This document shows positions 14,051 through 34,821 of a DNA stretch of 35,889 nucleotides, piece by piece. The stretch lies in IMG/VR virus record IMGVR_UViG_3300035703_000244, positions 1-35,889 of that record; one strand, 5' to 3'. The position numbers were made by a program, and so were the translations under genes. Positions within the stretch are counted from its first letter, which is position 1. Every line of letters starts with the position of its first letter. Under the pieces are notes generated by a model. That model made no database searches, had not been told where the DNA came from, and saw only the letters and a list, made by a program, of their open reading frames with translations. This stretch comes from a virus.

Positions 14051-14344
14051 ATGAAAATACCAATAGTACAGAATAACAACTACATAATATACTTAGAATA
14101 CTTTAGTGATCTTTACTGGCTACATACAGATGTGTTTAACTGGACAAGTAAAGTAAAGACAGACTACCTAGATAAACTAAATAAACTTCAGTTACTTCTT
14201 AATGATGATTTGTTTGGTCTAGTTGATAACGATAAGCTTGGTAAGTTTGGTGGTACAATAGGATTTAAATATTTACATGATGTCACTGGAGCAGATAATA
14301 ACCAGTACAAAGTTTATACTAGGAGATTAGAATGGGTAAAGTAG
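14051..14344 (+). CDS. Hypothetical protein, weak acetyltransferase resemblance
   Basis: The 97-residue product is Leu/Asp/Lys/Tyr-rich (YLDKLNKLQLLLNDDLFGL) with a later KLGKFGGTIGFKYLHDV. The KF..xIGF pattern recalls the end of GNAT acetyltransferase-like phage proteins, but the fold is not complete here. It starts directly after the preceding stop and overlaps the next gene by 13 bases. The function is unknown. Confidence 0.6.
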   Translation: MKIPIVQNNNYIIYLEYFSDLYWLHTDVFNWTSKVKTDYLDKLNKLQLLLNDDLFGLVDNDKLGKFGGTIGFKYLHDVTGADNNQYKVYTRRLEWVK

Positions 14345-15504
14345 TCGGGTCTATATTAGAACCTTTTACTGGTGCTAAAGCTACTCGTAGGGCGGCAGAT
14401 GCGGCTGCTCAGCAACAAGCAGAAGCTGCGAGACAATCTGGATACGCTGCTGCATTTAGACCAGTAGGGTTTACTACTCGCTTTGGTACTTCTCGTTTCA
14501 CTGAGGAGATTGATCCTGTTTCTGGTCTTCCTCGTGTCACTGGTGGCGGTTACGAGATATCTCCTGAATTAAAAGTTCTACAAGATCGGTTAATGGGTCT
14601 GACTGGAGGAGCCGTAACTACTGCCGAAGAAGCTGCATTAGCAGGGCAACCACTAGGAGAAGCTGCTCAAAGTTTGTTTGGTTTAGGTTCTAGGTTCTTG
14701 CCTACTGACATCTCTCGTCAAGCTTCACCAGAGGCAATGGCTCAAGCACAGCGTTTCTATGGTCTAGCTAATCAGGTTACTCCTACTAGCTATGATCCTC
14801 GTGCTGCTGCTCAGAGCTACTACCAAGAAGCTCAGGCAATGCTTGATCCTACTCGTCAACGTGAAGAGGCACGCCTGGGCGCTGGTGTCTTTGGGCGTGG
14901 TAGGGCAGGATTGAATATTAGTGGTCAAGGTCAACCAGAACTCTTTGCACTAGCACAAGCACGAGAGGAACAGAATACTGCATTGGCTGCTCAAGCTCGT
15001 GAGCGTGCTCGTGCAGAACTACAGCAAGATATTGGTCTGGGTACTCAGCTTGGGTTGTCTGGTTTGTCTACTCAGCAGCAGGCAGAGAATCTTGCTAGAG
15101 CTAGACTAGCAGAAGACATAGGTCTAGGAACAGATCTATTCGGCACAGGAGCGTCTCTCTTGGGTCAACGGTATGCCCTACCTACTCAGGCGTTGGGACC
15201 GTTACAGAGCTATCTAGGCACGATAGAGAGCATTGAACAGCTAGGGCAACAGCCATTCCAACTTGGTATGCAGCTTGGTGGACAAGTTCAAGCAGGCGGT
15301 GAAGCAGGCGGTAGATTACTTGGTGCTGGTTTAACTCAAGCTGCTGATACTAGGTATCAAGGTATTCGAGCAGGCAACGCTGCTAATCAAGCTTTCTTAC
15401 AAGCTATGATGGGTTCTGCTGCTGGTGGGTTTAGTGGAGGTGGTGGTGGAGGTGGTGGAGGTGTAGGAATGCGTCCTGGTACAACTGGATACGGTACATT
15501 CTAA
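14332..15504 (+). CDS. Internal virion protein, Ala/Gln/Gly-rich
   Basis: This 390-residue protein begins MGKVVGSILEPFTGAKATRR, followed by an Ala/Gln-rich helical segment (ADAAAQQQAEAARQ). A long helical body with many LGTQLGLSGL-like turns follows, and the protein ends in a poly-Gly run (about residues 366-376) plus MRPGTTGYGTF. The size, composition and position after the tail genes fit podophage internal or ejection proteins that leave the capsid ahead of DNA and build the channel across the envelope. No catalytic motif is seen. Confidence 0.65.
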   Translation: MGKVVGSILEPFTGAKATRRAADAAAQQQAEAARQSGYAAAFRPVGFTTRFGTSRFTEEIDPVSGLPRVTGGGYEISPELKVLQDRLMGLTGGAVTTAEEAALAGQPLGEAAQSLFGLGSRFLPTDISRQASPEAMAQAQRFYGLANQVTPTSYDPRAAAQSYYQEAQAMLDPTRQREEARLGAGVFGRGRAGLNISGQGQPELFALAQAREEQNTALAAQARERARAELQQDIGLGTQLGLSGLSTQQQAENLARARLAEDIGLGTDLFGTGASLLGQRYALPTQALGPLQSYLGTIESIEQLGQQPFQLGMQLGGQVQAGGEAGGRLLGAGLTQAADTRYQGIRAGNAANQAFLQAMMGSAAGGFSGGGGGGGGGVGMRPGTTGYGTF

Positions 15505-15514
15505 AGGAAAGAAT

Positions 15515-16351
15515 ATGGGAATTAGCGCTCAACAAATGCTACAGAATGATCCAGACTATCTTGCTAGGCAAGCTGCTAGGCAAGAGATTCAACAATATCA
15601 AAACTTTCAAAATCCTCAACTTGGTTTAGCTGCTACTAGTGGAGCACTTATTGGTCGAGGCTTGGCTAATCTGTATCAAGGTCGAGGGTTTTTTGAAACA
15701 AGTGATCCTGCACTGCGTAGAGTATCTGAGATACAATCATTATATAACAATGCAATGCAATCCTTTGATCCTATGGATCCTTCTAAATCTTATGCTACGT
15801 TAGCTACCACATTAGCACAACGTGGATACGGTAGAGAAGCTGCTCTTGCTGCTGCGGAAGCTAATAAATATATGGGGCAAGGAGAAGATCGTGATCTTAA
15901 ACGGCAAGAAATAAGCGCACGTATCAGCGCTACAGAAGCACAAGCAGAAGCTACAAAAGAAACTGCAGCACAACGAGCAGCCGCCGCTGAAGAAGCTCGA
16001 AATAAAATTACTACAATAGGTACTACAACTAAACGATTAACTACTTATCGTAAAGGAACTGAGCCTCAAATTTATGTAATGAATGAAAAAGGTGAAGAAG
16101 AAAAATATAAACCTTCTATTCATGGTGGGTATGAGGTTGCAGAAGATCGACGTACACCACCTGCTGCTAGACCTGTATATCAAAGAGATGCTTATCAAAA
16201 CGTATATCAAATGAATCCTGACGGTACAAAAACTCTTGTCATTCCTGGTTTAGTTACTCCAGGACAAGCTGCTCCTGGTGCTGCGCCTGCGCCTAAAAAC
16301 GGTGTTAGAACTGTAGATCAGCTTCTTCAAGATCTATCTAAAGCCAAATGA
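15515..16351 (+). CDS. Internal virion protein, hypothetical
   Basis: The 278-residue protein has Gln-rich helices at the N-terminus (DYLARQAARQEIQQYQN), a long Ala/Glu helix at about residues 130-165 (ISATEAQAEATKETAAQRAA) and a Pro-rich C-terminal tail. It lies between two putative ejection protein genes. Its stop overlaps the next ATG by four bases. AAAGGAAAGA precedes the ATG. The role is inferred from position and composition. Confidence 0.65.
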   Translation: MGISAQQMLQNDPDYLARQAARQEIQQYQNFQNPQLGLAATSGALIGRGLANLYQGRGFFETSDPALRRVSEIQSLYNNAMQSFDPMDPSKSYATLATTLAQRGYGREAALAAAEANKYMGQGEDRDLKRQEISARISATEAQAEATKETAAQRAAAAEEARNKITTIGTTTKRLTTYRKGTEPQIYVMNEKGEEEKYKPSIHGGYEVAEDRRTPPAARPVYQRDAYQNVYQMNPDGTKTLVIPGLVTPGQAAPGAAPAPKNGVRTVDQLLQDLSKAK

Positions 16352-17715
16352 AAATTATTGAGCTTCCGATTTTTGGGCCAATTGGTTTTCCTGAAGATAT
16401 GTCTGATCAGGAGATATATGATACTATTCAAAACAAAGTATTTAAAGGACAGCTAAGAGACTATAGCAAAGCTGAGACTGCCGTTATGGGTCTTGAGCGT
16501 GGATTTACTTCATCTGCTAGAACTCTTGCAGGTGGTAGATCTGAAGAAGTTACTCCTGGGTATGAAGATCCGTTAACCAGTATGATGTCTGTTGCTCCTG
16601 TATCCTCTACTGAAGAGACAGACGAACAGAAAGAATTAAAGTTTAGGATTGCTCGAGATCAAAACCCAATCACTGGATACGGCACACAGATACTAGGTTC
16701 TATTGCTGATCCTGCTGGTCTTGCTATTCCACTAGGTAAAGCTGCTACCTTTGGTTCTTTTGTTAAACAGGGTATAGGTACTGGTGCTATTGGTGGTGTG
16801 CTCGAGCCTACATATGAACAGTTTGGAGACAGTCGGTTAGAGAACATTGCTTATGGCGCTGCAGGTGGCGGTCTATTAACTGCTGCTGTTGGTAAAGTAT
16901 TTAAGAAACAGTTGTTTCCTGATGAAGCAGCAGCTAAGACTGTACCTGATGATGGTCCTAAACCTACAGAAACTCCTGCTGCTACTACTGCATCACAAGC
17001 AGATGAACCAGACATTAAACCTTCTATCGTAGAAGATCCTGTTAATCTTACTGATGAGATTAATGCACTACCTAAACTACCACAATACTTGTCTGGCTTA
17101 AAACCTAGGTTTGCTAAGTCTGAGATTTCTTTTGAATCTGACTTAGATGCCGCACTCTATGCAGTTGGTAATCCTAAAACTAAATCTGCAAGGCACGACG
17201 ATTATATGCAATTCTTGCAACAGTCTTTGCAATTACCAGAAGATGAAGTAGTTAAACTTGCTTCTGCTGTGCGTAAAGAAGTAATTGAAGCTGGCATGAA
17301 AGCACAGAAAGATGCTGGTATGGCAGGACAAAAAACACTTGACTCTTTTACTTTTAATCTGTCATCTAACTTAGATAATTTATTGTTTCCTGTAACAAGA
17401 AAGCTTGACGATTCATCAAAATTCGTGTATAATTTTGGTAAAGCTATTCAGCCAGATGCTAAAGGACTGTACAGAATTAACGAACGTAGTCCTGATATAC
17501 AGACTTTGGTTACAAAAGTAAAAGAAATTGATCCTGCTTTTACTTCACAAGACGCTGTACTAGCTGCACGTGGTTACTCTCAGTTGCTGGATACAATGAA
17601 GACAACAATGGGTAGGCAGTTTAAACCACGGTCTTTTGATGACATACTCATTAACAAGTTAGATGAAGAGTCTTGGATCAAACTCTTTGGTCAAGGAGCG
17701 TTTGATGGCTGCTAA
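16348..17715 (+). CDS. Large internal virion (ejection) protein, part 1 of 3
   Basis: The 455-residue product starts MKIIELPIFGPIGFPEDMSD, an N-terminus like other large podophage internal virion proteins. It has a hydrophobic, glycine-rich region at about residues 115-190 (GTGAIGGVLEPTYEQFG, AAGGGLLTAAVG) that could enter the membrane. It ends abruptly at the TAA at 17713. The next gene starts inside it and continues with similar composition. The three genes 16348-20370 together equal the size of one T7 gp16-like protein (~1,340 residues). No transglycosylase motif is evident. Confidence 0.7.
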   Translation: MKIIELPIFGPIGFPEDMSDQEIYDTIQNKVFKGQLRDYSKAETAVMGLERGFTSSARTLAGGRSEEVTPGYEDPLTSMMSVAPVSSTEETDEQKELKFRIARDQNPITGYGTQILGSIADPAGLAIPLGKAATFGSFVKQGIGTGAIGGVLEPTYEQFGDSRLENIAYGAAGGGLLTAAVGKVFKKQLFPDEAAAKTVPDDGPKPTETPAATTASQADEPDIKPSIVEDPVNLTDEINALPKLPQYLSGLKPRFAKSEISFESDLDAALYAVGNPKTKSARHDDYMQFLQQSLQLPEDEVVKLASAVRKEVIEAGMKAQKDAGMAGQKTLDSFTFNLSSNLDNLLFPVTRKLDDSSKFVYNFGKAIQPDAKGLYRINERSPDIQTLVTKVKEIDPAFTSQDAVLAARGYSQLLDTMKTTMGRQFKPRSFDDILINKLDEESWIKLFGQGAFDGC

Positions 17716-18337
17716 GTGTGACTTAAAGTTTTATAAGTATTTTGCTCCAGCAAAGAACCCAAGTGCTTTGTCTGCTCGTCAACTAGATATGATTGCTAAT
17801 CTAGGTGAGCATAGAGCAACAAAGTATTTGTCTTCTCGTGATTATCTAAATGATGATACGACTAAAGTATTAGAATCTTTGGCTGCTATAGCTCCTCAGC
17901 GATTTGCTAGAACCACTAACATAGGTAGACCTATACCTGAAGTAATGCAAGAGGCTCAGCAAGCAGGAGAGCGCCTTGCCAGAGCTACTAGCGAAGGATC
18001 GGATTACCTTGAAGAAGCAGCAGAAAACATAGCAAGGAACTTCCGTAAAGGTAGTCCTATGTCAATGGAAGAACGATCAGTAATTTATCCTGCATTTAAG
18101 AATCGCATGGATAACCTACCTCTATTGACTCGACAGATTCAGTACGCACATCAGAATAATAACACTCAGACTGCTTCTGTATTAGCTATGGAATTAGTTA
18201 AGACAATGGGAATGTCTGCTGCTGTGTTTGGGGATAAGAATGCTGTGTCTGTTGCTATGAATTCTATGAAGTATTTAAATAGGCAAATTAAACAAGCTGA
18301 GACTATTAACAGATTATTTCAGAATGGTGAGTGCTAA
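17705..18337 (+). CDS. Large internal virion (ejection) protein, part 2 of 3
   Basis: This is a 210-residue helical protein (YKYFAPAKNPSALSARQLDM). I place the start at ATG 17705 because AAGGAG lies seven bases upstream. The frame is also open further back, to 17663. It overlaps the first part by 11 bases and is in the +1 frame relative to it. The stop (TAA at 18335) overlaps the ATG of part 3. Either the genes are a natural fission with coupled translation or two frameshifts split one gene. The good ribosome site favours fission. Confidence 0.65.
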   Translation: MAAKCDLKFYKYFAPAKNPSALSARQLDMIANLGEHRATKYLSSRDYLNDDTTKVLESLAAIAPQRFARTTNIGRPIPEVMQEAQQAGERLARATSEGSDYLEEAAENIARNFRKGSPMSMEERSVIYPAFKNRMDNLPLLTRQIQYAHQNNNTQTASVLAMELVKTMGMSAAVFGDKNAVSVAMNSMKYLNRQIKQAETINRLFQNGEC

Positions 18338-20370
18338 TGGTAAACCTTTCTAAAAAGTGTTTAGATTTTATTGCAAGAATGTCTGACAGTATTAACGAAC
18401 TGTATACTAATCCTGCTGTGTCCCCTGCTGAGGCTGCTCAAGCTGCAGCAGAAGGAATGACAAAAGCACTAAAGACTCCTGGTATTCGAGATAGGATTGG
18501 TTCGTTTATTCGTAATAGTTACTTGAGTGCTATGTCAACCCAAGCAATTAACTTTGTTAATAACCTTGTCCCTATTATTACTTCACCTATTATTCGTACA
18601 CTATCAGGTAAACCACGAGAAGGTTTGGCAATGCTCGAGGGAATTACTGAAGGATTCCTTGAAGCATTCCCTAGATTCTTTGCTGGTTTGTCTAAGCGTA
18701 CTGAAGACTTTGATGGTAATACACATAATGCTTTTGACATAGTACGTAATAAATATGCTGATGCTGCTCTTACATATCCACAGAAATTGACAGGTGCTTT
18801 AGACCAAGCATTCTCTGCTGTGCTTGAGCGGATGGAATTTAAAGCTATGCTACATCGTATTAAGAATTCTTTTCCTGATGAATACTTTACTCGTAATGGA
18901 TTAGATAAAACAAAGTTTGTACAAGAATTAGAACAAGTAGCGTTGAAGAGAGGTGATGGTAACCTTGCTTTCTTACGTTTGTTAGAGAATCAAAGTCCTG
19001 AGTTGTATCAACAGTTACAAGAGTTTGCTGCTGTTGGGACATTCCGTACACCATTGGGTAGATCTTTACTTGATCAGATGGGTAAGAAAATATCTGATGC
19101 AAAGAATGTAGCTCCTGAGTTAAACCTTGTTGTTCCGTTTGTTCGTACTGGTATTAACGTAGCTAAATATGCTGGCGGGTTTATTCCTGGTCTAGGTCAA
19201 TTACGTGTTAGACAAGCTAAGAAAGACATTGAGCTTATTGACAGTCAGATTAATTCTCTACTACAACGGGAAACTAAAGCTAAAGAGAAAGCCAATCAAG
19301 CTCTCTTCCCTGGTCAAGCAGAAAGCTGGAGAGCTAAAGCTCAAGCATTAGAAACACGCAGGCGTAAACTTGAAGGTACTCGTACATTTAAAGAAGAACA
19401 GATACCTGAGTTCTATGTCCAACAGGTTGTTGGTGCTGGTATGATGCTGTCTACCTACGGGTTAGTTAACGCTGGTCTGTTAACTGGTCACTACTCTTCT
19501 GATCCTGCAACAAGGCAGAAACAAATGGCATCCGGTATGCGTGAGATGTCTATTCGAGTAGGAGATAGGTGGATTAGTTATGATCGAGTAGAACCATTCT
19601 CTACAGTCATGGGTCTAGTAGCAGATGGCATGACTGCTCTTAAAGAAGGTAGAATGAAAGGTGAATCTCCTGGTGTTGGAGACATAGCAAAGATTGTAGG
19701 ACGTAACTTGTTAGATAAAACTTTTACTGAAGGTCTTGGTAAAATGTTTTTAGCTATTCAAGAATCAGATCGTTACTTAGAAAGTTATTTAGTAAGTCTA
19801 ACCAATCCATTAGTACCAGCTATTGTAAATCAAATAGCAAGGTTGCGTGATCCTTTGGTCCGAGAAACTAAAGATCCTGAACTAGCAGACTGGATGCTTA
19901 ATAGTATTAAATCTCGTATACCAGGGTTAAGGGAACAATTACCTGCTCGTCCTGATGTCTTAGGTCAAGAGCAACCATTATATGGCGTGTCTACTGGTAT
20001 CGCTGTAGCTCCAGTAAATCAAGATGAAGTACGTGCTCTCCTTGATAATCCTTATCTTACTATTGACAGACCAGATAGAAAGATTGGCGGTATTGAGCTA
20101 GACATGGAACAGTTTGCTGCTCTTGAACAGCGTGTTGGTCAGCGAGTGTATGAAGTATTTGGTATGATGGCAGCTAATCCTGGGTTTGCTAGTGTTCCTA
20201 AATCTTTACAAGCAAAGTTCTTAAAAGAAATGGTAACTGAGATTAGGCAACAAGAACGTCTAGCTGCGCTTGGTACTTTAATTCAAGATCCAGCTTTACG
20301 AGCACAGTACATACTGAAGGAAATGCAAAAGATGGGCCTTGGTTCGTTAGTAGAAGAAGAGGAAGAGTAA
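18337..20370 (+). CDS. Large internal virion (ejection) protein, part 3 of 3
   Basis: The 677-residue protein is mostly helical and has IGSFIRNSYLSAMSTQAINF near the N-terminus, where several large internal virion proteins have a membrane-active stretch. A Lys/Glu/Ala coiled segment lies at about residues 295-355. Then come GAGMMLSTYGLVNAGLLTGH (a hydrophobic stretch) and an acidic end (VEEEEE). The TAATG overlap couples it to part 2. A GTG at 18331 is an alternative start, and a stop at 18328 bounds the frame. Confidence 0.72.
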   Translation: MVNLSKKCLDFIARMSDSINELYTNPAVSPAEAAQAAAEGMTKALKTPGIRDRIGSFIRNSYLSAMSTQAINFVNNLVPIITSPIIRTLSGKPREGLAMLEGITEGFLEAFPRFFAGLSKRTEDFDGNTHNAFDIVRNKYADAALTYPQKLTGALDQAFSAVLERMEFKAMLHRIKNSFPDEYFTRNGLDKTKFVQELEQVALKRGDGNLAFLRLLENQSPELYQQLQEFAAVGTFRTPLGRSLLDQMGKKISDAKNVAPELNLVVPFVRTGINVAKYAGGFIPGLGQLRVRQAKKDIELIDSQINSLLQRETKAKEKANQALFPGQAESWRAKAQALETRRRKLEGTRTFKEEQIPEFYVQQVVGAGMMLSTYGLVNAGLLTGHYSSDPATRQKQMASGMREMSIRVGDRWISYDRVEPFSTVMGLVADGMTALKEGRMKGESPGVGDIAKIVGRNLLDKTFTEGLGKMFLAIQESDRYLESYLVSLTNPLVPAIVNQIARLRDPLVRETKDPELADWMLNSIKSRIPGLREQLPARPDVLGQEQPLYGVSTGIAVAPVNQDEVRALLDNPYLTIDRPDRKIGGIELDMEQFAALEQRVGQRVYEVFGMMAANPGFASVPKSLQAKFLKEMVTEIRQQERLAALGTLIQDPALRAQYILKEMQKMGLGSLVEEEEE

Positions 20371-21854: not shown

Positions 21855-23744
21855 TCAAATCTCGCAGGTTCCTGACACACACGCAAGCATCTGCGCTCCC
21901 TCTACATTGTCATCCTGCTCTGACAATACATCCCAAGTAATAGTAGCAGGCATCTTATCTAGCAGTGCTTTGTACTGATCCTCACCACACTCTTCATAGG
22001 GTGCTTGACGATACGTACCACCATCCCAGGGTAGGAAAGAGATACCACTAATCTCATCGAAGTTATTCCACACCCAAGCTCCTACGTCCATCCACTCATC
22101 TTCTTTGACTGAGATAGTCACAGAAGGTTTGTGCTCACACCAGTAACGCTGGTACTGCATCCACAGATCCAGGTGCTGCAGCGCTGTCAGTGCTTCCCTG
22201 GTGCGTGCTCCTTCTGGTGCTTTCTGTGGGAATGAGAACACCACAGTAGACTCAGGACGCATCACACAATCCTCTGCAGGGATACCAGCATTCACCATAA
22301 ACTGCGAGAGAGGATCTTTCTTATCGCCTCTAACCCTACGAATATAATAAGGACTATGTCGAGTATGAATGCCAGAGGCAGAGTTAACAAGCTGGCTAAC
22401 AGTACCACTAGGTTTAACACAAGTGATTGCAGCGCTCTGAGGAATGCCAAGCACAGAGCTATACTGAACATTGGTATCCACGGTGATCTGTCGTAGTTGT
22501 TCAAGATTCTTCGCAGTTGATTCACAGACTTTACCCATCCATTCGTTATCTAAGATACCAGTCAATGACACACCAAGCAGACGCTCCTCCTCAGTGTTCT
22601 TCTGCCACACTTTACGCAGGTATGGGAAGTGTGTCATAGTGGCTTGGAACGTACCCAGGATAGTAGCAAGACGTACCTTGTTTGCTAGCGTCTCAAGCGT
22701 GTCCTCAGCACGTACAACCACCTCAGTTAGGTTGCAGAACTGGTAGGGTCTGAGGATGATCTCGGAACAGGGATTAGTACCGAACTCGTAATTAGGATTC
22801 CTTCTGCCGTTCTTAGCAGCTTGAGACTTACTGGCTGCTCGAGAGAAGATTCCTCGTTCCCCAGAGTGAGAATGGTAAAGGCTAGTCCATTCTTGTAGAA
22901 ATTGTCCAATGTCTGGTTTAGCTTCGTAAGTTGCTGAGTTGTTAGCCAAGGCACGTTGTCCATTTTGTTCCCACCAATTCCCTGATTTCGCATGACGCAT
23001 CCGATCATCTTCTAGTTCTGACAACGAGATCATTGCTGACCGACGAACACCACCAACGACAACAACCTCCCCGATCTTGCAGAGAATATCATGGCACTCG
23101 ATTGATGACAAACGCCGACCAACTGCCCCTTTGAACTTGGATACCGTGAAGCGAAATAGTTCTTCCAATGGGCGAGGTCCACTTGCTCGTCCCCCAAAGG
23201 TCTTGAGTCTCTCACCCGCTGGACGTACTTTGGATATATCCCACTTTGCAATCTCACCAGAGTATAGAAGAGCAATGAGTTGACGTAAAGCTTTTGCCCA
23301 TCCTTCTTTGGAGTCGGCAACCACGATAGTAGTTTGACTATCGAATAACTGCTCAGGCACTTCAGGTAATTGATTAACATACTTCTGCTCCACAGAGAAA
23401 CCTACCCCTGTACCACAGAGCAGGATATACATAGCTTCATCGAATGACTTAGGATCATCGATAGGAATGTAGCTGCAGTTATATCCAGCAGTGTTGTCAC
23501 GCTCGAGTGCTTTGCCTGCTGTCATCAGTGACCGCATACTAGGCATAACTTCCAGATTAAGTACAGCATTCTCTAGCTCAGTGCGTAGCTCACGAGTCAG
23601 CGCATAGTTGTTTGTCTTGGCAAGATGATCTTCCAAGAAGTTGAAGTAACGTGCTACAGTTTCAGTCCAGTTCTCTCGACGATTCTTCTCAGGCATGAAG
23701 CGAGCATAACGTGACTTTGCAATAAATTGTTGGTAAAGATCCAT
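21855..23744 (-). CDS. nrdJ: B12-dependent (class II) ribonucleotide reductase, monomeric
   Basis: The enzyme reduces ribonucleotides to deoxyribonucleotides with an adenosylcobalamin-generated thiyl radical. The 629-residue protein has C90 in GYNCSYIP, GGVRRSAMISL at about 231, then NPCSEI (C326, thiyl site, with E328) and C337 in YQFCNL. Its C-terminus carries the reductant Cys pair C622/C627 (CVSGTCEI). That is the full set for the Lactobacillus-type monomeric NrdJ, which is about 110 residues longer. No NrdA/NrdB is present. The gene lies in an operon with two small upstream genes driven by the promoter at 24117. The host must supply cobalamin. Confidence 0.92.
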   Translation of the reverse strand: MDLYQQFIAKSRYARFMPEKNRRENWTETVARYFNFLEDHLAKTNNYALTRELRTELENAVLNLEVMPSMRSLMTAGKALERDNTAGYNCSYIPIDDPKSFDEAMYILLCGTGVGFSVEQKYVNQLPEVPEQLFDSQTTIVVADSKEGWAKALRQLIALLYSGEIAKWDISKVRPAGERLKTFGGRASGPRPLEELFRFTVSKFKGAVGRRLSSIECHDILCKIGEVVVVGGVRRSAMISLSELEDDRMRHAKSGNWWEQNGQRALANNSATYEAKPDIGQFLQEWTSLYHSHSGERGIFSRAASKSQAAKNGRRNPNYEFGTNPCSEIILRPYQFCNLTEVVVRAEDTLETLANKVRLATILGTFQATMTHFPYLRKVWQKNTEEERLLGVSLTGILDNEWMGKVCESTAKNLEQLRQITVDTNVQYSSVLGIPQSAAITCVKPSGTVSQLVNSASGIHTRHSPYYIRRVRGDKKDPLSQFMVNAGIPAEDCVMRPESTVVFSFPQKAPEGARTREALTALQHLDLWMQYQRYWCEHKPSVTISVKEDEWMDVGAWVWNNFDEISGISFLPWDGGTYRQAPYEECGEDQYKALLDKMPATITWDVLSEQDDNVEGAQMLACVSGTCEI

Positions 23745-27306: not shown

Positions 27307-27335
27307 ATTATACCACGCTTACAACTAGAAGTCAA
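27307..27335 (-). promoter_or_regulatory. Sigma70 promoter with extended -10, SSB operon
   Basis: On the minus strand TTGACT (27335-27330), a 17-bp spacer ending in TGG, TATAAT (27312-27307). The -35 has one mismatch. The predicted start near 27300 gives a 28-base leader. The -35 box overlaps the end of the polymerase gene. Confidence 0.83.
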
Positions 27336-28984
27336 TGGGTTTCTGCCCAAGTATTTCCTACTCTGTATTCACCAGTTAGAGGACACCTGAGTTGTAAAAC
27401 TTCACCAGCTTCTTTGATCGCTTCCACTGCCATACTACCAACAGTCTCAGCATTCTCCTTACGAACTTCAATCTGCCATTCATCATGTACATTCGCCACA
27501 AAGTGTGCATCAATTTTATTCTTCTTGATCTTACCATCTAGTAAGACAAGTGCCTGCTTCATTACTATCGCACCAGCACCCTGGAGTAACGTGTTAAGTG
27601 CTGCGTGTGGGGAACGAACGTGAAGTTTCCTACCGTCCAAAGCTGGTAGGTAGCCCTTCTCTGCCAACCTCTCAACCTTTGACCTAAGTGCCTTGAGCGC
27701 AGGCGTGTTATCCAGAAAAGACTTAATGAGTTTCCTCCCTTCTTCTGCTCCACCACCCACAACTGCCCCGATCTTAGCTGGGCCAGCCCCATATAGGAAT
27801 GCGTAGATGAATGTCTTTGCTTGCGGTCTAGTTTGAAGACCTGCTGCATTTTGGTTTTTGGTATGAATGTCACCTTCACAGACTTCTTTAACATAATCCT
27901 TATCCCTCATGTAGTGAGCCAGCATCCTTAGTTCCAAGCCACTAGCGTCAGCACCTACTAACATATACCCATCATCAACAGTCCAGCAATCCCTACACTC
28001 TGTACCCCAGGGACTAGATCCACTAGGAACCTGTGCCATGTTGGGACTATGGTGGGTCATACGTCCTGTGACTGCGCCATTGGTGATGACCTTACCATGT
28101 ACCCTGCTGGTGTCAGATACAGCGTCAAGCCAGGAGCTAACTTGAGCCACCCTTTTCTGAAGGAGTAGGTACTCGGTAATTGCTCTTGCTTCTGGTATAT
28201 CAATTCCATCCAAGACTTTTTCATCTACAATCACTGATCCCTTCTCTGTAAACTTCTCAGGTTTCCATCCTAACTTGATAAGTCTATCAGCTATTTGTGC
28301 TCTACTACCTGGGTTAAACACCTCTATATGATCCTTTAACTTCTTGCCTGTCTTCTCAGACACACGCTCTGTTATGATAGGCGGGAAGATACCCTGTAGT
28401 TCTTCTTCGATCTCCGAGAGTCTAGTCTTCCAAGTTGCCACCAAGTTAACAGCCTTCGCAACGTCAAGCTTAAACCCATGTTTCTCCTGCCTCGATATGA
28501 TTGCAGCTACGTTGTGCTCGAGATCGATACAGCGTTGATCCCATCCCTTTAGTTCGCTGGACAAGTGGGTGTACAGATCATGTGTTACCTCTACGTCCTG
28601 CTTACAGTACATCAACATCTCATCGCTTAGTCCATCGTTGAAGCTCGTGAAGTTCCCTTTGAATTTCCCTAGCCTCTTTCCCCATGCGTCGAGACTGTGT
28701 CCTCCCTCTAGGCTTGGGCTGAGCAACCTCGACATCACTAACGTATCCAACACTTGGCTCAAACGAATCTTCAAGCTCCATTGCTGATTCAAGATCGGTG
28801 CATCGAATCCAATGATGTTGTGTCCAACTAACAGATCGTCCTGCCTTAGATAACTTCTCAAACTTTTTGCTTCCGTCCATACATTAATCTCACCAGTAGT
28901 TATATCTTTAGTTACGCAGCACCAGATGGTGTCGTGCTTTGTGTTGGTTTCAATGTCAAGTATGATTGTCCTAGAGCGGCTCAT
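27332..28984 (-). CDS. DNA polymerase I family (T7-type), with 3'-5' exonuclease
   Basis: The 550-residue enzyme has exonuclease motifs D10-I-E12-T, GHNIIGFD (55-61, Exo II) and YCKQD (126-130, Exo III). Polymerase motif A is GADASGLELR (D346), motif B is R386...K390-TFIY394-AFLYG399 and motif C is VHDEW (H500, D501). The residue equal to E. coli F762 is Tyr394. There is no 5'-3' exonuclease domain. At 550 residues it is about 150 shorter than T7 gp5, so the thioredoxin-binding insertion is probably missing. The start is ATG 28984, overlapping the helicase gene end. A TTG lies one codon upstream. Confidence 0.93.
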   Translation of the reverse strand: MSRSRTIILDIETNTKHDTIWCCVTKDITTGEINVWTEAKSLRSYLRQDDLLVGHNIIGFDAPILNQQWSLKIRLSQVLDTLVMSRLLSPSLEGGHSLDAWGKRLGKFKGNFTSFNDGLSDEMLMYCKQDVEVTHDLYTHLSSELKGWDQRCIDLEHNVAAIISRQEKHGFKLDVAKAVNLVATWKTRLSEIEEELQGIFPPIITERVSEKTGKKLKDHIEVFNPGSRAQIADRLIKLGWKPEKFTEKGSVIVDEKVLDGIDIPEARAITEYLLLQKRVAQVSSWLDAVSDTSRVHGKVITNGAVTGRMTHHSPNMAQVPSGSSPWGTECRDCWTVDDGYMLVGADASGLELRMLAHYMRDKDYVKEVCEGDIHTKNQNAAGLQTRPQAKTFIYAFLYGAGPAKIGAVVGGGAEEGRKLIKSFLDNTPALKALRSKVERLAEKGYLPALDGRKLHVRSPHAALNTLLQGAGAIVMKQALVLLDGKIKKNKIDAHFVANVHDEWQIEVRKENAETVGSMAVEAIKEAGEVLQLRCPLTGEYRVGNTWAETH

Positions 28985-30554
28985 CAAATCGTTCCGTCAT
29001 TCGTCCTGTATCCTTACTATAATACAACGAACATGCTGGTCCTGTCAAGCCACTGAAACGATTCTTCAATACACGCACCCTGGTAGTATGCCTATCCATG
29101 AGGTCTTCAGCCTGTCCATTACGCTCCAGACCCAGGACTATGTCAGACAGTTGACCAATCGAACCTGAGCCTCGTAGCTGGCTTAGAGAGGTGGCTGCTC
29201 CCTCCTCGTGACCCTTACTATCTGGACGCTTGAGGTGAGACACTGCGAACAAAGCTATGCCAGTTTCTGCCACGATCATGCGAAGTCTTGTCATGATCTC
29301 GTCTAACGCTTTCCTCTCGTCCCCATTATCCTGAGAAGATACGACGATGCTAACGTGATCAAGGAAGATATACTTGCACGACAGCGCCTTAGCCATAAAC
29401 CGAACACGATTAATGATGTTGTCAACTGCAGTCGATCCAAAGTGGTCAAAGAAAAATAGGCGATCAGTGCCAAGAGTATCGTCAAAAGCATTTCGTAGTT
29501 CATCTGTTGTTACCTCGCAGTCAGGCAGGTGTAGTGGTTTACTGGCAGACAATGACATCAGACTCTTGGCAGTCTTCTTAACTGACTCCTCGAGAAACAT
29601 CAGTCCAATGTTATCATTTGTATTCTTAAGAATGTGATACACAATCTCACGCAGGAACTGTGACTTACCTAGACCAGACCCTGCAGTGACAGTGATAAGC
29701 TCTCCTGCCCTGATACCATAGGTCAGATCGTTCATACCTTGGTAGGGGTAGAGCACATCAGCTTTCTCTACTGGTTGGTTGACAAGATCCCACAGTCCCT
29801 TGCCTGCAATGATACCATCAGGTACGTACTGCTCAGCTTGCCACCACTTGTCTACGAATCGCTTGCCTTGTGCTCCTGATAGATAGTCACACGCATCCTT
29901 GTACCCTTGCTCGTGCTTGAAGATACGAGTCTTGGGTCCAAAGAGTTCTGCCACTTGAGAAGCTGCGTCTGCACCTTGTTGGTCACTATCAAAACAGACC
30001 ACCACATTCTCGAACGAATCGATCCATTCAAAGTTCGCCTTACAATCTGCGAGTGCAGATCCAGCGCCATTCCTGATAGATACGACAGGATACTTAGACC
30101 CCAACATCTGATACGCTGCGAGAGCATCGAACTCTCCTTCCACTATGGTTACGTACTTACCACCCTTGTTGAATAGCTGCTGCCCAAAGAGCTTAGCTTC
30201 CTTCCAAGATCCCTCGATACTAAACTTCTTCTCAGTTACACCACGCTTCTTGTATGCAGCTACTCGATTATCATCACTGTAATAAGGGAAGTAGTAACTG
30301 TTGTTGAAGATACCTACACCATAGTCCTGGCAGGTAGTCTTGGTAATACCACGATCAGTCACTGATTCATAAGCTAGATCAGTGGGTTCTACCAGTGCAG
30401 TATGCACAGTGAAGTTCCTTTCCATTGGTTTTCTATCATTATCAAAGTGAGTTGCACCACAAGAGAAACACTTAGTACCCCAATCATATACTGCCAGTGC
30501 ATCGCTAGATCCACAGTCATCACATGGTTGATGGGATGCTAATTGTTTAGACAC
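28971..30554 (-). CDS. Bifunctional primase-helicase (T7 gp4-like)
   Basis: The 527-residue protein has an N-terminal zinc ribbon (C11-x2-C14, C29-x2-C32), the TOPRIM motifs VEGEFDALAAY (139-149) and CFDSDQQG (187-194), then the helicase Walker A GSGLGKS (292-298) and FLDHVSIV Walker B. It forms a ring on the lagging strand, unwinds DNA and makes RNA primers. The start is GTG 30554, with AAAGGAG at seven bases. This start lies in a cassette that repeats at the two upstream junctions. The gene is followed by the polymerase gene with a 14-base overlap. Confidence 0.93.
   Translation of the reverse strand: MSKQLASHQPCDDCGSSDALAVYDWGTKCFSCGATHFDNDRKPMERNFTVHTALVEPTDLAYESVTDRGITKTTCQDYGVGIFNNSYYFPYYSDDNRVAAYKKRGVTEKKFSIEGSWKEAKLFGQQLFNKGGKYVTIVEGEFDALAAYQMLGSKYPVVSIRNGAGSALADCKANFEWIDSFENVVVCFDSDQQGADAASQVAELFGPKTRIFKHEQGYKDACDYLSGAQGKRFVDKWWQAEQYVPDGIIAGKGLWDLVNQPVEKADVLYPYQGMNDLTYGIRAGELITVTAGSGLGKSQFLREIVYHILKNTNDNIGLMFLEESVKKTAKSLMSLSASKPLHLPDCEVTTDELRNAFDDTLGTDRLFFFDHFGSTAVDNIINRVRFMAKALSCKYIFLDHVSIVVSSQDNGDERKALDEIMTRLRMIVAETGIALFAVSHLKRPDSKGHEEGAATSLSQLRGSGSIGQLSDIVLGLERNGQAEDLMDRHTTRVRVLKNRFSGLTGPACSLYYSKDTGRMTERFDEPL
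29019..29048 (-). promoter_or_regulatory. Possible internal promoter before DNA polymerase gene
   Basis: On the minus strand TTGACA (29048-29043), 18-bp spacer, TATTAT (29024-29019), inside the 3' end of the helicase gene. The predicted start is about 30 bases before the polymerase ATG. The -10 is non-consensus at one base and no TGn is present, so this call is weaker than the others. Confidence 0.5.
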
Positions 30555-32324: not shown

Positions 32325-32413
32325 GATCTACAATATCCTTTATCGTTATCAAAGTTACATTCTAAAGTACAAGGGGTTAAAGGGAGTTCATTACTGTTGG
32401 GCATAGTTGACAT
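32216..32413 (-). CDS. DUF1289-like zinc protein
   Basis: The 65-residue product has PCTLECNFDNDKGYCRSCLR and then TVNDLKKWSTMTQQQRNERM. C-x3-C, GYCRSCLRT and W-x-xMTxxxR match DUF1289 (a predicted small zinc-binding family). The function is unknown. AAGGAT lies six bases before the ATG. It overlaps thyX by 37 bases upstream and the next gene by 109. Confidence 0.82.
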   Translation of the reverse strand: MSTMPNSNELPLTPCTLECNFDNDKGYCRSCLRTVNDLKKWSTMTQQQRNERMTELLQLKVLFNQ

Positions 32414-33099
32414 AAGATATCCTTACATTGCTGTGCAACAATCCTGTGCTCCTTCTGTGTCTCAGGTCCAGTACGTAGCTGCACGTAGTGAATCCATGAC
32501 CTCAGAGTACCATTCATATACATCTTACTCATGGTTAAACCCTCTGGCAATACCTTACGTGCTACCTCCTTCGCTATACCTGCCCGTAAAGCCCCTTTAT
32601 AGGCTCGCTGTGCGGTTTCTAGTACCTCTTGCTGGAGGTAGTACCAGTTACCCTTCAGAACCTCGTCAGCAGTCTCTAAAGAGGCTTGACGATTCTTCGT
32701 ATCTTGGAGGCGTGCCTCTGAGGTAACGAAGTCAGTGCTCTCAGCGTAACGTTGACTGAACTCTTGGAATGTAAAGCTACGATGACGCAAGATCTGACGA
32801 GCGATATCCCTGGTACAATTAATCTCCATACAAACGTTAACCATCTCGAAAGGTGACCAGTGCTGGTGTTTGATTAGGTACTTGATCAGCTTCTCATAGT
32901 CTGGGTTATCCTGATTGGCAGGGTTGGATACTCGAGCCATAGCTGCAATGTATCCTTCCATGCCCTCAGTAGACCAGACAAGCTTAGCACTAGCATGTAC
33001 ACCTGAGCGTAGCGAACCACTAACAGAGACATCTTCCTCTGTAGGGAGGTTCTCCGAACCTAGATCTACATCATAAGGTACACCTGATACCCTTACCAT
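32377..33099 (-). CDS. thyX: Flavin-dependent thymidylate synthase
   Basis: ThyX makes dTMP from dUMP with methylene-tetrahydrofolate and FAD. The 240-residue protein has HWSPFEMVNVCMEI and the diagnostic RHRSFTFQEFS motif (RHR-x7-S at residues 105-115), then SQRYAES, GLTMSKMYMNGTLRSW and LRTGPETQKEHR, so all substrate and flavin contact regions are present. An N-terminal extension of about 38 residues precedes the core. The start is ATG 33099 (GGAAG upstream, TAATG overlap with the previous gene). With NrdJ it adds to dNTP supply. Confidence 0.94.
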   Translation of the reverse strand: MVRVSGVPYDVDLGSENLPTEEDVSVSGSLRSGVHASAKLVWSTEGMEGYIAAMARVSNPANQDNPDYEKLIKYLIKHQHWSPFEMVNVCMEINCTRDIARQILRHRSFTFQEFSQRYAESTDFVTSEARLQDTKNRQASLETADEVLKGNWYYLQQEVLETAQRAYKGALRAGIAKEVARKVLPEGLTMSKMYMNGTLRSWIHYVQLRTGPETQKEHRIVAQQCKDILCQLCPTVMNSL

Positions 33100-33293
33100 T
33101 ACTTCCAATCCTCATGACTCTGCTCTCGAGGAATCAGAGCGTCGCCCTCAGCATCACGAGAGAACAAAGTGATTGTAAACTCCTGATGATCTTTACCATA
33201 GGTAATGACGATGTCACGTACAAAACTACCACTGAACTGTTCTTTGATATCACTTAGTTCTATCTTCTTAATATCATGTACATTAGTATACAT
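33099..33293 (-). CDS. Hypothetical protein, 64 aa
   Basis: The product begins MYTNVHDIKKIELSDIKEQF and has GSFVRDIVITYGKDHQEFTI, an alternation of polar and hydrophobic residues that suggests a beta sheet. It is the gene directly before thyX and is joined to both neighbours by TAATG overlaps. AGGAG precedes the ATG. The function is unknown. Confidence 0.65.
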   Translation of the reverse strand: MYTNVHDIKKIELSDIKEQFSGSFVRDIVITYGKDHQEFTITLFSRDAEGDALIPREQSHEDWK

Positions 33294-33923: not shown

Positions 33924-34141
33924 GCTAATACTTCTACCTCTCCATCAGTCTGAATCCAGACATGAGCACCACAAGACAAAGGTTTATCAGGACTGTATAC
34001 AATCTCTGAATCCCCATGAATCTTTACCTTATGAGCATACACATTACTCTTATATGTCTTCACTGTCAAGACTGGTAAAGATAAATTTTCCTTACGATTC
34101 TTTTTAATATTGTGCTGGTTCACATGTACAATAGTTTTCAT
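33920..34141 (-). CDS. Conserved small phage protein, 73 aa
   Basis: The product begins MKTIVHVNQHNIKKNRKENL and continues LPVLTVKTYKSNVYAHKVKI with PDKPLSCGAHVWIQT. The HVNQHxIxxNRK...LTVKTYKSNxYxHxVxIxG...CGAxVWIxT pattern is one of the commonest small early proteins in phages of Proteobacteria. No function is settled that I know of. It is coupled to genes on both sides (TAATG upstream, ATGA downstream). Confidence 0.85.
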   Translation of the reverse strand: MKTIVHVNQHNIKKNRKENLSLPVLTVKTYKSNVYAHKVKIHGDSEIVYSPDKPLSCGAHVWIQTDGEVEVLA

Positions 34142-34791
34142 TATGCCACCTTTACAAGTTTAATAACCTTCGCCTTCGACGTACCATGATAAGGGTATGC
34201 AATGACCTTGACATTCTTGGACCAACACGCACGACAATCTCCACACCTACCCTCTCGAGTGTAAGCTTCACACTCTACAGTGTCATTAGGTCTACTAGTA
34301 GGATACTTCGCATAAGGCACAATAACACTAGAAGTCATAGGCGTATCGAGACACTCGCCAGTCACACTATCACTAGACAAGCGAACCACTACATTAGACA
34401 AACAAGACATGTCAAATAGTACGTCTTTGAACTTGTCAAACTTGTGCATGCGAGTAGGAAACCAGTGCTGAGTCTTGGGTGTTCGTCTCATTACTTCGAG
34501 AATCTTTAAAGCTAACTCTCGATGATAACAATCGCCACTATCGAACCACCTAAAATAAGGGTCTTCGCCTATAGCGTCAACCATTCTATCGCACCAGTCA
34601 TCTAACTTCCAATCTTCTAGGTTACGTGCTCGAACTGCTTTAACATTGGAATAAACATAATTCCCACGCCTAGCATAACAAAACTTACATGCGTCTACTG
34701 CTTCGCCATTGTCATCCCTAGCGCCAGGACAAGTGTCCCATGCCTGTAGTGACCAGCTATAACAGCCTAGTTTACTAGTCTTCGATAACAT
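34141..34791 (-). CDS. GP88-like Cys-rich protein
   Basis: The 216-residue product begins MLSKTSKLGCYSWSLQAWDT and has CPGAR, ACKFCYARRGNYVYSN, then FRWFDSGDCY, TPKTQHWFPTRMHKF and CEAYTREGRCGDCRACW. SKTSKLGxYSWSL...CPGA...CxxCYA...RWFDSGD...FPTR is the signature of proteins like mycobacteriophage gene 88 (GP88). Many Cys could bind metal or an iron-sulphur cluster. The biochemical role is unknown. The ATG at 34791 follows GGAG, and a TTG-started extension to 34803 is less likely. Confidence 0.8.
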   Translation of the reverse strand: MLSKTSKLGCYSWSLQAWDTCPGARDDNGEAVDACKFCYARRGNYVYSNVKAVRARNLEDWKLDDWCDRMVDAIGEDPYFRWFDSGDCYHRELALKILEVMRRTPKTQHWFPTRMHKFDKFKDVLFDMSCLSNVVVRLSSDSVTGECLDTPMTSSVIVPYAKYPTSRPNDTVECEAYTREGRCGDCRACWSKNVKVIAYPYHGTSKAKVIKLVKVA

Positions 34792-34821
34792 TACAGTCTC
34801 CAATAAGTAACCATTGAGTAC

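What the first reader, a model, noticed from the sequence alone, without database searches (positions are those of the whole stretch)
16348..20370. One large ejection protein apparently split into three coupled genes
Three consecutive genes (455, 210 and 677 residues) occupy the place of a single gp16-like internal virion protein and have continuous composition. Borders overlap by 11 and 1 base, in frames 1, 2 and 1. The first border has a clear AAGGAG site, which favours real gene fission over sequencing errors. Splitting would let the three parts be ejected as separate subunits.
Basis: partly seen in the sequence, partly recalled or inferred. Interest (0 to 1): 0.5.

Follow-up and report, generated by a model that had tools for sequence, protein, structure and literature searches.

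The report
Split phage ejection protein, cysteine-capped ends
A large protein that short-tailed phages inject ahead of their DNA is encoded here as three separate pieces whose only cysteines sit at the cut ends, which suggests that the pieces are tied together again by disulfide bonds, a new and testable way to build and perhaps later dismantle a DNA-injection machine.

Summary
Observation confirmed. Three coupled genes (455, 210, 677 aa) replace one gp16-like internal virion protein. It is no sequencing error: two other IMG/VR records share the borders, with 124 substitutions and no indel over 4,023 bases, mostly at third codon positions of each gene's own frame.

Relatives as distant as 24-33% identity keep this. 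In 24 distinct systems 66 of 66 cysteines are at split ends; in 39 of 39 distinct gene-2/gene-3-type borders both sides are capped. Twenty-eight ORFs counted as unsplit hold 6 Cys in 36,322 residues. Against: three of 26 phage-collection records examined have splits without caps, and none has caps.

Best explanation: old gene fission whose ends are rejoined head to tail by inter-chain disulfides, perhaps opened again in the reducing host cytoplasm. The cysteine pattern is shown; the bond is inferred.

The parts
16348..17715 (+). Gene 1, 455 aa, N-terminal part of the gp16-like ejection protein; its only Cys is the last residue
   Evidence: profile match of the gene-1 family to the upstream gene of two-part relatives, E 6.7e-41
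17693..17698 (+). AAGGAG, Shine-Dalgarno-like site of gene 2, six bases before its ATG
17705..18337 (+). Gene 2, 210 aa, middle part; only Cys are residues 5 and 210 (last)
   Evidence: weak profile match of its C-terminal half to the end of the upstream gene of two-part relatives (E 0.048)
18337..20370 (+). Gene 3, 677 aa, C-terminal part; its only Cys is residue 8
17710..17712 (+). J1 upstream cap: codon TGC of Cys455, last residue of gene 1
17717..17719 (+). J1 downstream cap: codon TGT of Cys5 of gene 2
18332..18334 (+). J2 upstream cap: codon TGC of Cys210, last residue of gene 2
18358..18360 (+). J2 downstream cap: codon TGT of Cys8 of gene 3
14332..15504 (+). Upstream gene in the place of a gp14-like internal protein, 390 aa, no Cys (named by position only)
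15515..16351 (+). Upstream gene in the place of a gp15-like internal protein, 278 aa, no Cys; overlaps gene 1 by 4 bases (named by position only)

Best explanation
A gp16-like ejection protein was cut by gene fission. The cut between genes 2 and 3 (J2) most likely arose once in the ancestor of a clade of uncultured podoviruses, and the cut between genes 1 and 2 (J1) once in the sub-clade of this window. At each cut the upstream chain carries a Cys as its last or second-last residue and the downstream chain carries one within its first ten residues; no other Cys exists in the protein. I propose that each pair forms an inter-chain disulfide, head to tail, so that the pieces act as one continuous chain in the oxidised virion and while they are threaded through the tail. 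If T7 topology applies, both cuts come to lie on the cytoplasmic side, where the bonds would be reduced and the pieces set free. Shown here: the fission and the position, exclusivity and conservation of the cysteines. Inferred: the bond, its partners, its timing and its release (the release step alone I put at about 0.35).
For: Window: 4 Cys in 1,342 residues, all within 8 residues of a border. 24 distinct systems: 66 of 66 Cys are caps, none elsewhere in 33,066 residues (25 systems given, one a duplicate). 39 distinct J2 borders: all 39 have Cys in the last two residues upstream and one within residues 7-10 downstream; a further eight loci that the script missed are capped too. 19 of 19 clusters at 90% identity keep both; the terminal Cys is the only column at 90% or more among 79 of the upstream tail, and M1 and the Cys are the only ones in the first 50 columns downstream. 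Background in ORFs counted as unsplit: 6 Cys in 36,322 residues, so one doubly capped border has a chance near 6e-7 if residues are independent (from 5 in 29,103). J1 and J2 are two different cuts with the same signature. Codon (TGC or TGT), stop (TAA or TGA) and spacing (overlaps of 11, 4 or 1, gaps of 8-10 bases) vary while the Cys stays, so selection acts on the residue. The last residues of a two-part upstream protein are predicted to be disordered (689-693, pLDDT under 50), as a tether would be.
Against: No bond was observed and none can be with these tools. Splits without caps exist in S-CBP3 (two records), S-CBP2 and MEP301, so caps are not needed for every split gp16, unless these are sequencing errors. 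The many rows descend from perhaps two fission events, so they show conservation rather than many independent gains. Assembly takes place in a reducing cytoplasm, so the bond would have to form later. No thioredoxin-like family was hit among ten early ORFs scanned. Structure models were too poor to test distances (pLDDT 47 and 65). Virions of this clade have not been studied.
Confidence: 0.6

Rival explanations
1. The border cysteines bind a metal ion or iron-sulfur centre between chains. Several copies of the protein meet in a ring, as T7 gp16 does, so two cysteines per border could make a four-ligand site that holds the pieces together without a disulfide.
For: Strict conservation of both cysteines at each border fits a ligand role too; T7 gp16 is seen as a tetramer in the virion (PMC8954989, passages).
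Against: No His, Asp or second Cys is conserved near the caps: Cys is the only column at 90% or more in the upstream tail. One Cys at an extreme C-terminus is an unusual ligand set.
Confidence: 0.13
2. The caps serve another thiol chemistry: bonding to a host or phage partner, disulfides between like chains around the ring, or a transient thioester or ligation step, rather than head-to-tail joining of neighbouring pieces.
For: Only the pattern of the cysteines is known; pairing partners are not.
Against: Caps occur as facing pairs: all 39 J2 borders have one on each side and J1 repeats the pattern. The downstream Cys is at residues 4-10, not at the N-terminus, which speaks against ligation of the native-chemical kind.
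Confidence: 0.15
3. Ordinary gene fission: the three parts bind without covalent links, and the cysteines are a by-product of a DNA or RNA signal at the border, such as TG(C/T)TAATGG for coupled translation.
For: Many borders share TGYTAATG. Cap-less splits of gp16 exist.
Against: Borders with a TGA stop, with a residue after the Cys, or with gaps of 8-10 bases and no overlap keep both cysteines; the Cys at residues 4-10 of the downstream gene is not explained; the proteins hold no other Cys.
Confidence: 0.08
4. Sequencing or assembly error, or a frameshift that yields one fused protein.
For: S-CBP3 and MEP301 show what a possible error looks like: an open downstream frame or a long out-of-frame overlap.
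Against: Same borders in other records without indels, third-position substitutions in each frame, conserved borders across 19 clusters, gaps of 8-10 bases after a stop in some relatives.
Confidence: 0.02

Closest known systems
T7 gp16 and gp16-like internal virion proteins (PHROG 342, PHROG 6651; Syn5 gp45, 1415 aa)
   Same: Gene 3 is homologous to their C-terminal part (Syn5: 23% identity over 89% of gene 3); gene 1 matches PHROG 342; place in the virion module before the lysis genes.
   Different: They are one chain; Syn5 gp45 has no Cys. Here there are three chains with Cys at each cut end. No lysozyme or transglycosylase domain was hit.
P22 gp16 and other short gp16-like proteins without a transglycosylase domain (PMC8954989, passages)
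   Same: Lack of the N-terminal enzyme domain.
   Different: Single short chain; homology to the window was not tested.
Cap-less split gp16 genes of S-CBP2, S-CBP3 and Methylophilales phage MEP301
   Same: gp16-like protein encoded by two neighbouring ORFs; S-CBP2's border (about Syn5 residue 694) is not far from J2.
   Different: No cysteine caps; two of the three may be frameshift errors.
crAss001 tail: disulfides between tail hub and ring proteins (PMC10172136, passages)
   Same: Inter-subunit disulfides in a phage virion.
   Different: They stabilise the outside of the tail, not pieces of one ejected protein.
N4 virion RNA polymerase gp50 (PMC12633501, preprint, passages)
   Same: Very large ejected multi-domain protein; the authors note that the ejectosome must become inactive or disassemble.
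   Different: Single chain; the words cysteine and disulfide do not occur in the text that was searched.

Membership tests
gp16-like internal virion (ejection) proteins | Sequence homology to gp16-like families | tested here: met
   PHROG 6651 E 1.7e-26 (gene 3), PHROG 342 E 3.4e-7 (gene 1); gene 2 alone has no match
gp16-like internal virion (ejection) proteins | Position in a podovirus virion module behind tail tube and two internal-protein-like genes | tested here: met
   the two upstream genes are named by position, they have no PHROG match
gp16-like internal virion (ejection) proteins | One chain of about 1,000-1,800 residues | tested here: not met
   Three ORFs, 455+210+677 aa; unsplit homologues are one ORF
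gp16-like internal virion (ejection) proteins | N-terminal transglycosylase domain (T7-type; absent in P22-type) | tested here: not met
   No such domain hit in Pfam at E<=1 or PHROGs; not universal in the family
gp16-like internal virion (ejection) proteins | Present in virions and ejected | not testable with these tools
   Needs virions and an infection assay
Disulfide-joined split protein | Cysteines facing each other across every border, none elsewhere | tested here: met
   66 of 66 Cys in 24 distinct systems; 39 of 39 J2 borders
Disulfide-joined split protein | Covalent bond between the chains | not testable with these tools
   Needs non-reducing gels or mass spectrometry

The most novel reading that the evidence does not exclude
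A redox-timed ejection machine: a gp16-type protein cut into pieces whose only cysteines splice the chain head to tail by disulfides in the oxidised virion, so that the parts are threaded in order, and whose bonds open in the reducing host cytoplasm, freeing the middle piece and helping to dismantle the channel after DNA entry.
Probability: 0.35. Interest if true: 0.85.

Novelty: new variant of a known kind. Interest (0 to 1): 0.74.

Why it matters
How very large ejection proteins pass a narrow channel, reassemble in the envelope and are later shut down is an open question (PMC8954989, PMC12633501; passages read). Here nature seems to have replaced chain continuity by cysteine pairs in proteins that otherwise hold no cysteine. 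That makes the question testable with two or four point mutations, or with oxidant and reductant. It also gives a simple sequence rule, a terminal Cys facing an N-proximal Cys across a gene border, for finding other split proteins that may be rejoined by disulfides.

Tried and rejected
Sequencing error: rejected. A DNA signal as the cause of the terminal Cys: rejected, since borders with other stops, an extra residue or gaps keep it. L208-L210 begin MPAKC and looked like another capped border: rejected, because the first codons form a terminator-like hairpin followed by a T run and MAYSN is the likelier start.

Limits of the counts. One search gave 87 Cys, 85 as caps and 2 as 'other'; the two are gene-2 Cys5 of the window and its twin (L005, L001), counted as 'other' only because the script took the longer 224-aa ORF. 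Distinctness there means different last 150 residues upstream or first 250 downstream; one upstream chain (L087) and four downstream chains are partial. Its 28 'unsplit' rows include L126, which is really the downstream half of the cap-less S-CBP3 split, and L208/L210 trimmed to the later start. Split-type ORFs without a found upstream gene (L086, L222) and 5'-open ORFs (L185, L189, L200, L203, L207, L227, L250, L007) were not counted. L176, L177, L232, L238, L240, L241, L242 and L257 were missed by the script's search for the upstream gene; all eight are capped on both sides, L176 and L177 being. Downstream starts were chosen as the ATG nearest the border, by hand; in L230 a longer ORF would add a Cys. 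In one search the Cys column is 18 of 19 because L243's Cys is two columns off.

Tools that led nowhere: gene-3 structure pLDDT 47, not searched further; fused two-part upstream protein pLDDT 65, no PDB match at E<=0.001; profile searches of PDB sequences gave no convincing match; genome-contig scan, no relative; tblastn of genes 1 and 2 in the phage collection, none. J1 could not be placed exactly on the fused homologue: the gene-1 profile matches its columns 10-333 and the gene-2 match is weak.

Literature: searches were seen as listings; passages of PMC8954989, PMC10172136 and PMC12633501 were read. None of what I saw describes cysteine-capped splits of an ejection protein. The library lacks most subscription papers.
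Full report
Observation. The window is a 35,889-base IMG/VR virus record with a podovirus virion module: portal, major head protein, tail proteins, two Cys-free genes in the place of gp14 and gp15, the three genes in question, then holin and endolysin. Genes 1-3 lie at 16348-17715, 17705-18337 and 18337-20370 in frames 1, 2 and 1, with overlaps of 11 and 1 base and an AAGGAG six bases before gene 2.

It is real. Two further records carry the region with 124 substitutions and no indel in 4,023 bases. Third codon positions take 50 of 67, 8 of 13 and 32 of 44 of them in the frames of genes 1, 2 and 3. Gene 3 is homologous to the C-terminal part of gp16-like internal virion proteins (PHROG 6651, E 1.7e-26; Syn5 gp45, 23% over 89% of gene 3) and gene 1 matches PHROG 342 over residues 92-186. 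Gene 2 has no family match.

The key feature. The three proteins hold four cysteines in 1,342 residues: C455 (last) of gene 1, C5 and C210 (last) of gene 2, C8 of gene 3. Relatives were gathered with gene 3, gene 2, the portal and profiles of genes 3 and 1 in viral contigs (all eight scans used). Three-part relatives (about 56-61% identity in gene 3) end gene 1 in GC or GCR, begin gene 2 with MARC or MSRC, end it in NGxC and have Cys 8 in gene 3. Two-part relatives (24-33% identity to gene 3, by aligner) have one upstream gene that ends in C, CK, CN, CQ, CL or CA, and Cys at residues 7-10 of the downstream gene.

Counts. In 24 distinct systems (25 given, one duplicate) all 66 cysteines are caps, none elsewhere in 33,066 residues. 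An automatic pass over all loci gave 39 distinct J2 borders, all 39 capped on both sides; it counted 87 Cys, 85 as caps, the other two being gene-2 Cys5 under a longer start. Eight more capped loci were missed by the script. Clustered at 90% identity, 19 of 19 clusters keep both caps; the terminal Cys is the only column at 90% or more among 79 of the upstream tail, and M1 and the Cys (18 of 19 aligned) the only ones in the first 50 columns downstream.

Controls. The 28 ORFs counted as unsplit hold 6 Cys in 36,322 residues; one of them (S-CBP3) is half of a cap-less split. The set (22 phage records) holds 5 in 29,103. In remote hits to the gene-1 domain 18 of 19 retrieved ORFs (793-4,034 aa) hold no Cys; L160 holds 5. 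In sister genomes with related portals the proteins in the gp16 place lack Cys and do not match genes 1-3. Against this background one doubly capped border has a chance near 6e-7 if residues are independent. Codon, stop and spacing vary while the Cys stays.

Against. Of 26 phage-collection records whose gp16 I looked at, three are split, S-CBP3 (389+863 aa), S-CBP2 (1051+773 aa) and MEP301 (464+586 aa), and none has caps; MEP301 has two Cys near the end of its upstream ORF, in a stretch that overlaps the downstream ORF out of frame. Whether these splits are real is open. A tree of 62 gene-3 rows puts all split rows in one group with 99% SH-aLRT that also holds one poorly filled unsplit row (L214, 16% of columns); three-part systems are one group (99%), two-part systems one side of a branch with 65% only. 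So the many rows are conservation after perhaps two fission events.

Mechanism. T7 gp16 is thought to unfold to leave the capsid, span the periplasm and inner membrane and put its large C-terminal part into the cytoplasm between two membrane regions (PMC8954989, passages). Both borders lie between the profile-matched regions of gene 1 (92-186) and gene 3 (250-542). If the topology is the same, bonds formed in the oxidised virion would be reduced after entry. The bond, its partners and its release are inference. A flexible tail fits: the last five residues of a two-part upstream protein are predicted to be disordered, in a model of modest quality.

Verdict. An old, real fission of a gp16-like ejection protein with a strict cysteine signature at its ends, which I did not find described in searches. 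Disulfide rejoining is the likeliest reading (0.6); a metal site or another thiol use are the chief rivals.

Noticed in passing
L129 5933-7372 and L130 5855-7372: Two records with 100% identical gene 3 have quite different N-termini of gene 1 (479 against 505 aa), as if the N-terminal domain had been swapped.
   Followed up: no
L089, L090, L091, L092, L093, L094, L098: Sister genomes with related portal and tail tube genes carry, in the gp16 place, Cys-free proteins of other sizes (502-1,015 aa) that do not match genes 1-3 at E 1e-3: module exchange at this place.
   Followed up: partly
L095 8922-11300: The tail tube B-like protein is 792 aa instead of about 520-540, with an insert of about 200 residues between matching parts.
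   Followed up: no
L155-L173: Very large proteins (up to 4,034 aa, several cut by the locus end) that share the gene-1 domain hold no cysteine in 18 of 19 cases.
   Followed up: partly
window 27332-28987 and 771-2762: The DNA polymerase is closest to those of pelagiphages HTVC103P and HTVC104P (about 51% identity), whereas the portal has no match in the phage collection at E 1e-5.
   Followed up: no
window 21855-23744 and 32377-33108: A ribonucleotide reductase (PHROG 367) and a Thy1 thymidylate synthase lie on the minus strand.
   Followed up: no
window 34141-34803: A protein of the family 'Gene product 88' (PF17338, E 1.2e-29), function unknown to me.
   Followed up: no
L260 3000-6099, L262 269-5745, L126 2290-6104: gp16-like genes of MEP301, S-CBP2 and S-CBP3 are split without cysteine caps; they may be errors or true cap-less splits.
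   Followed up: partly
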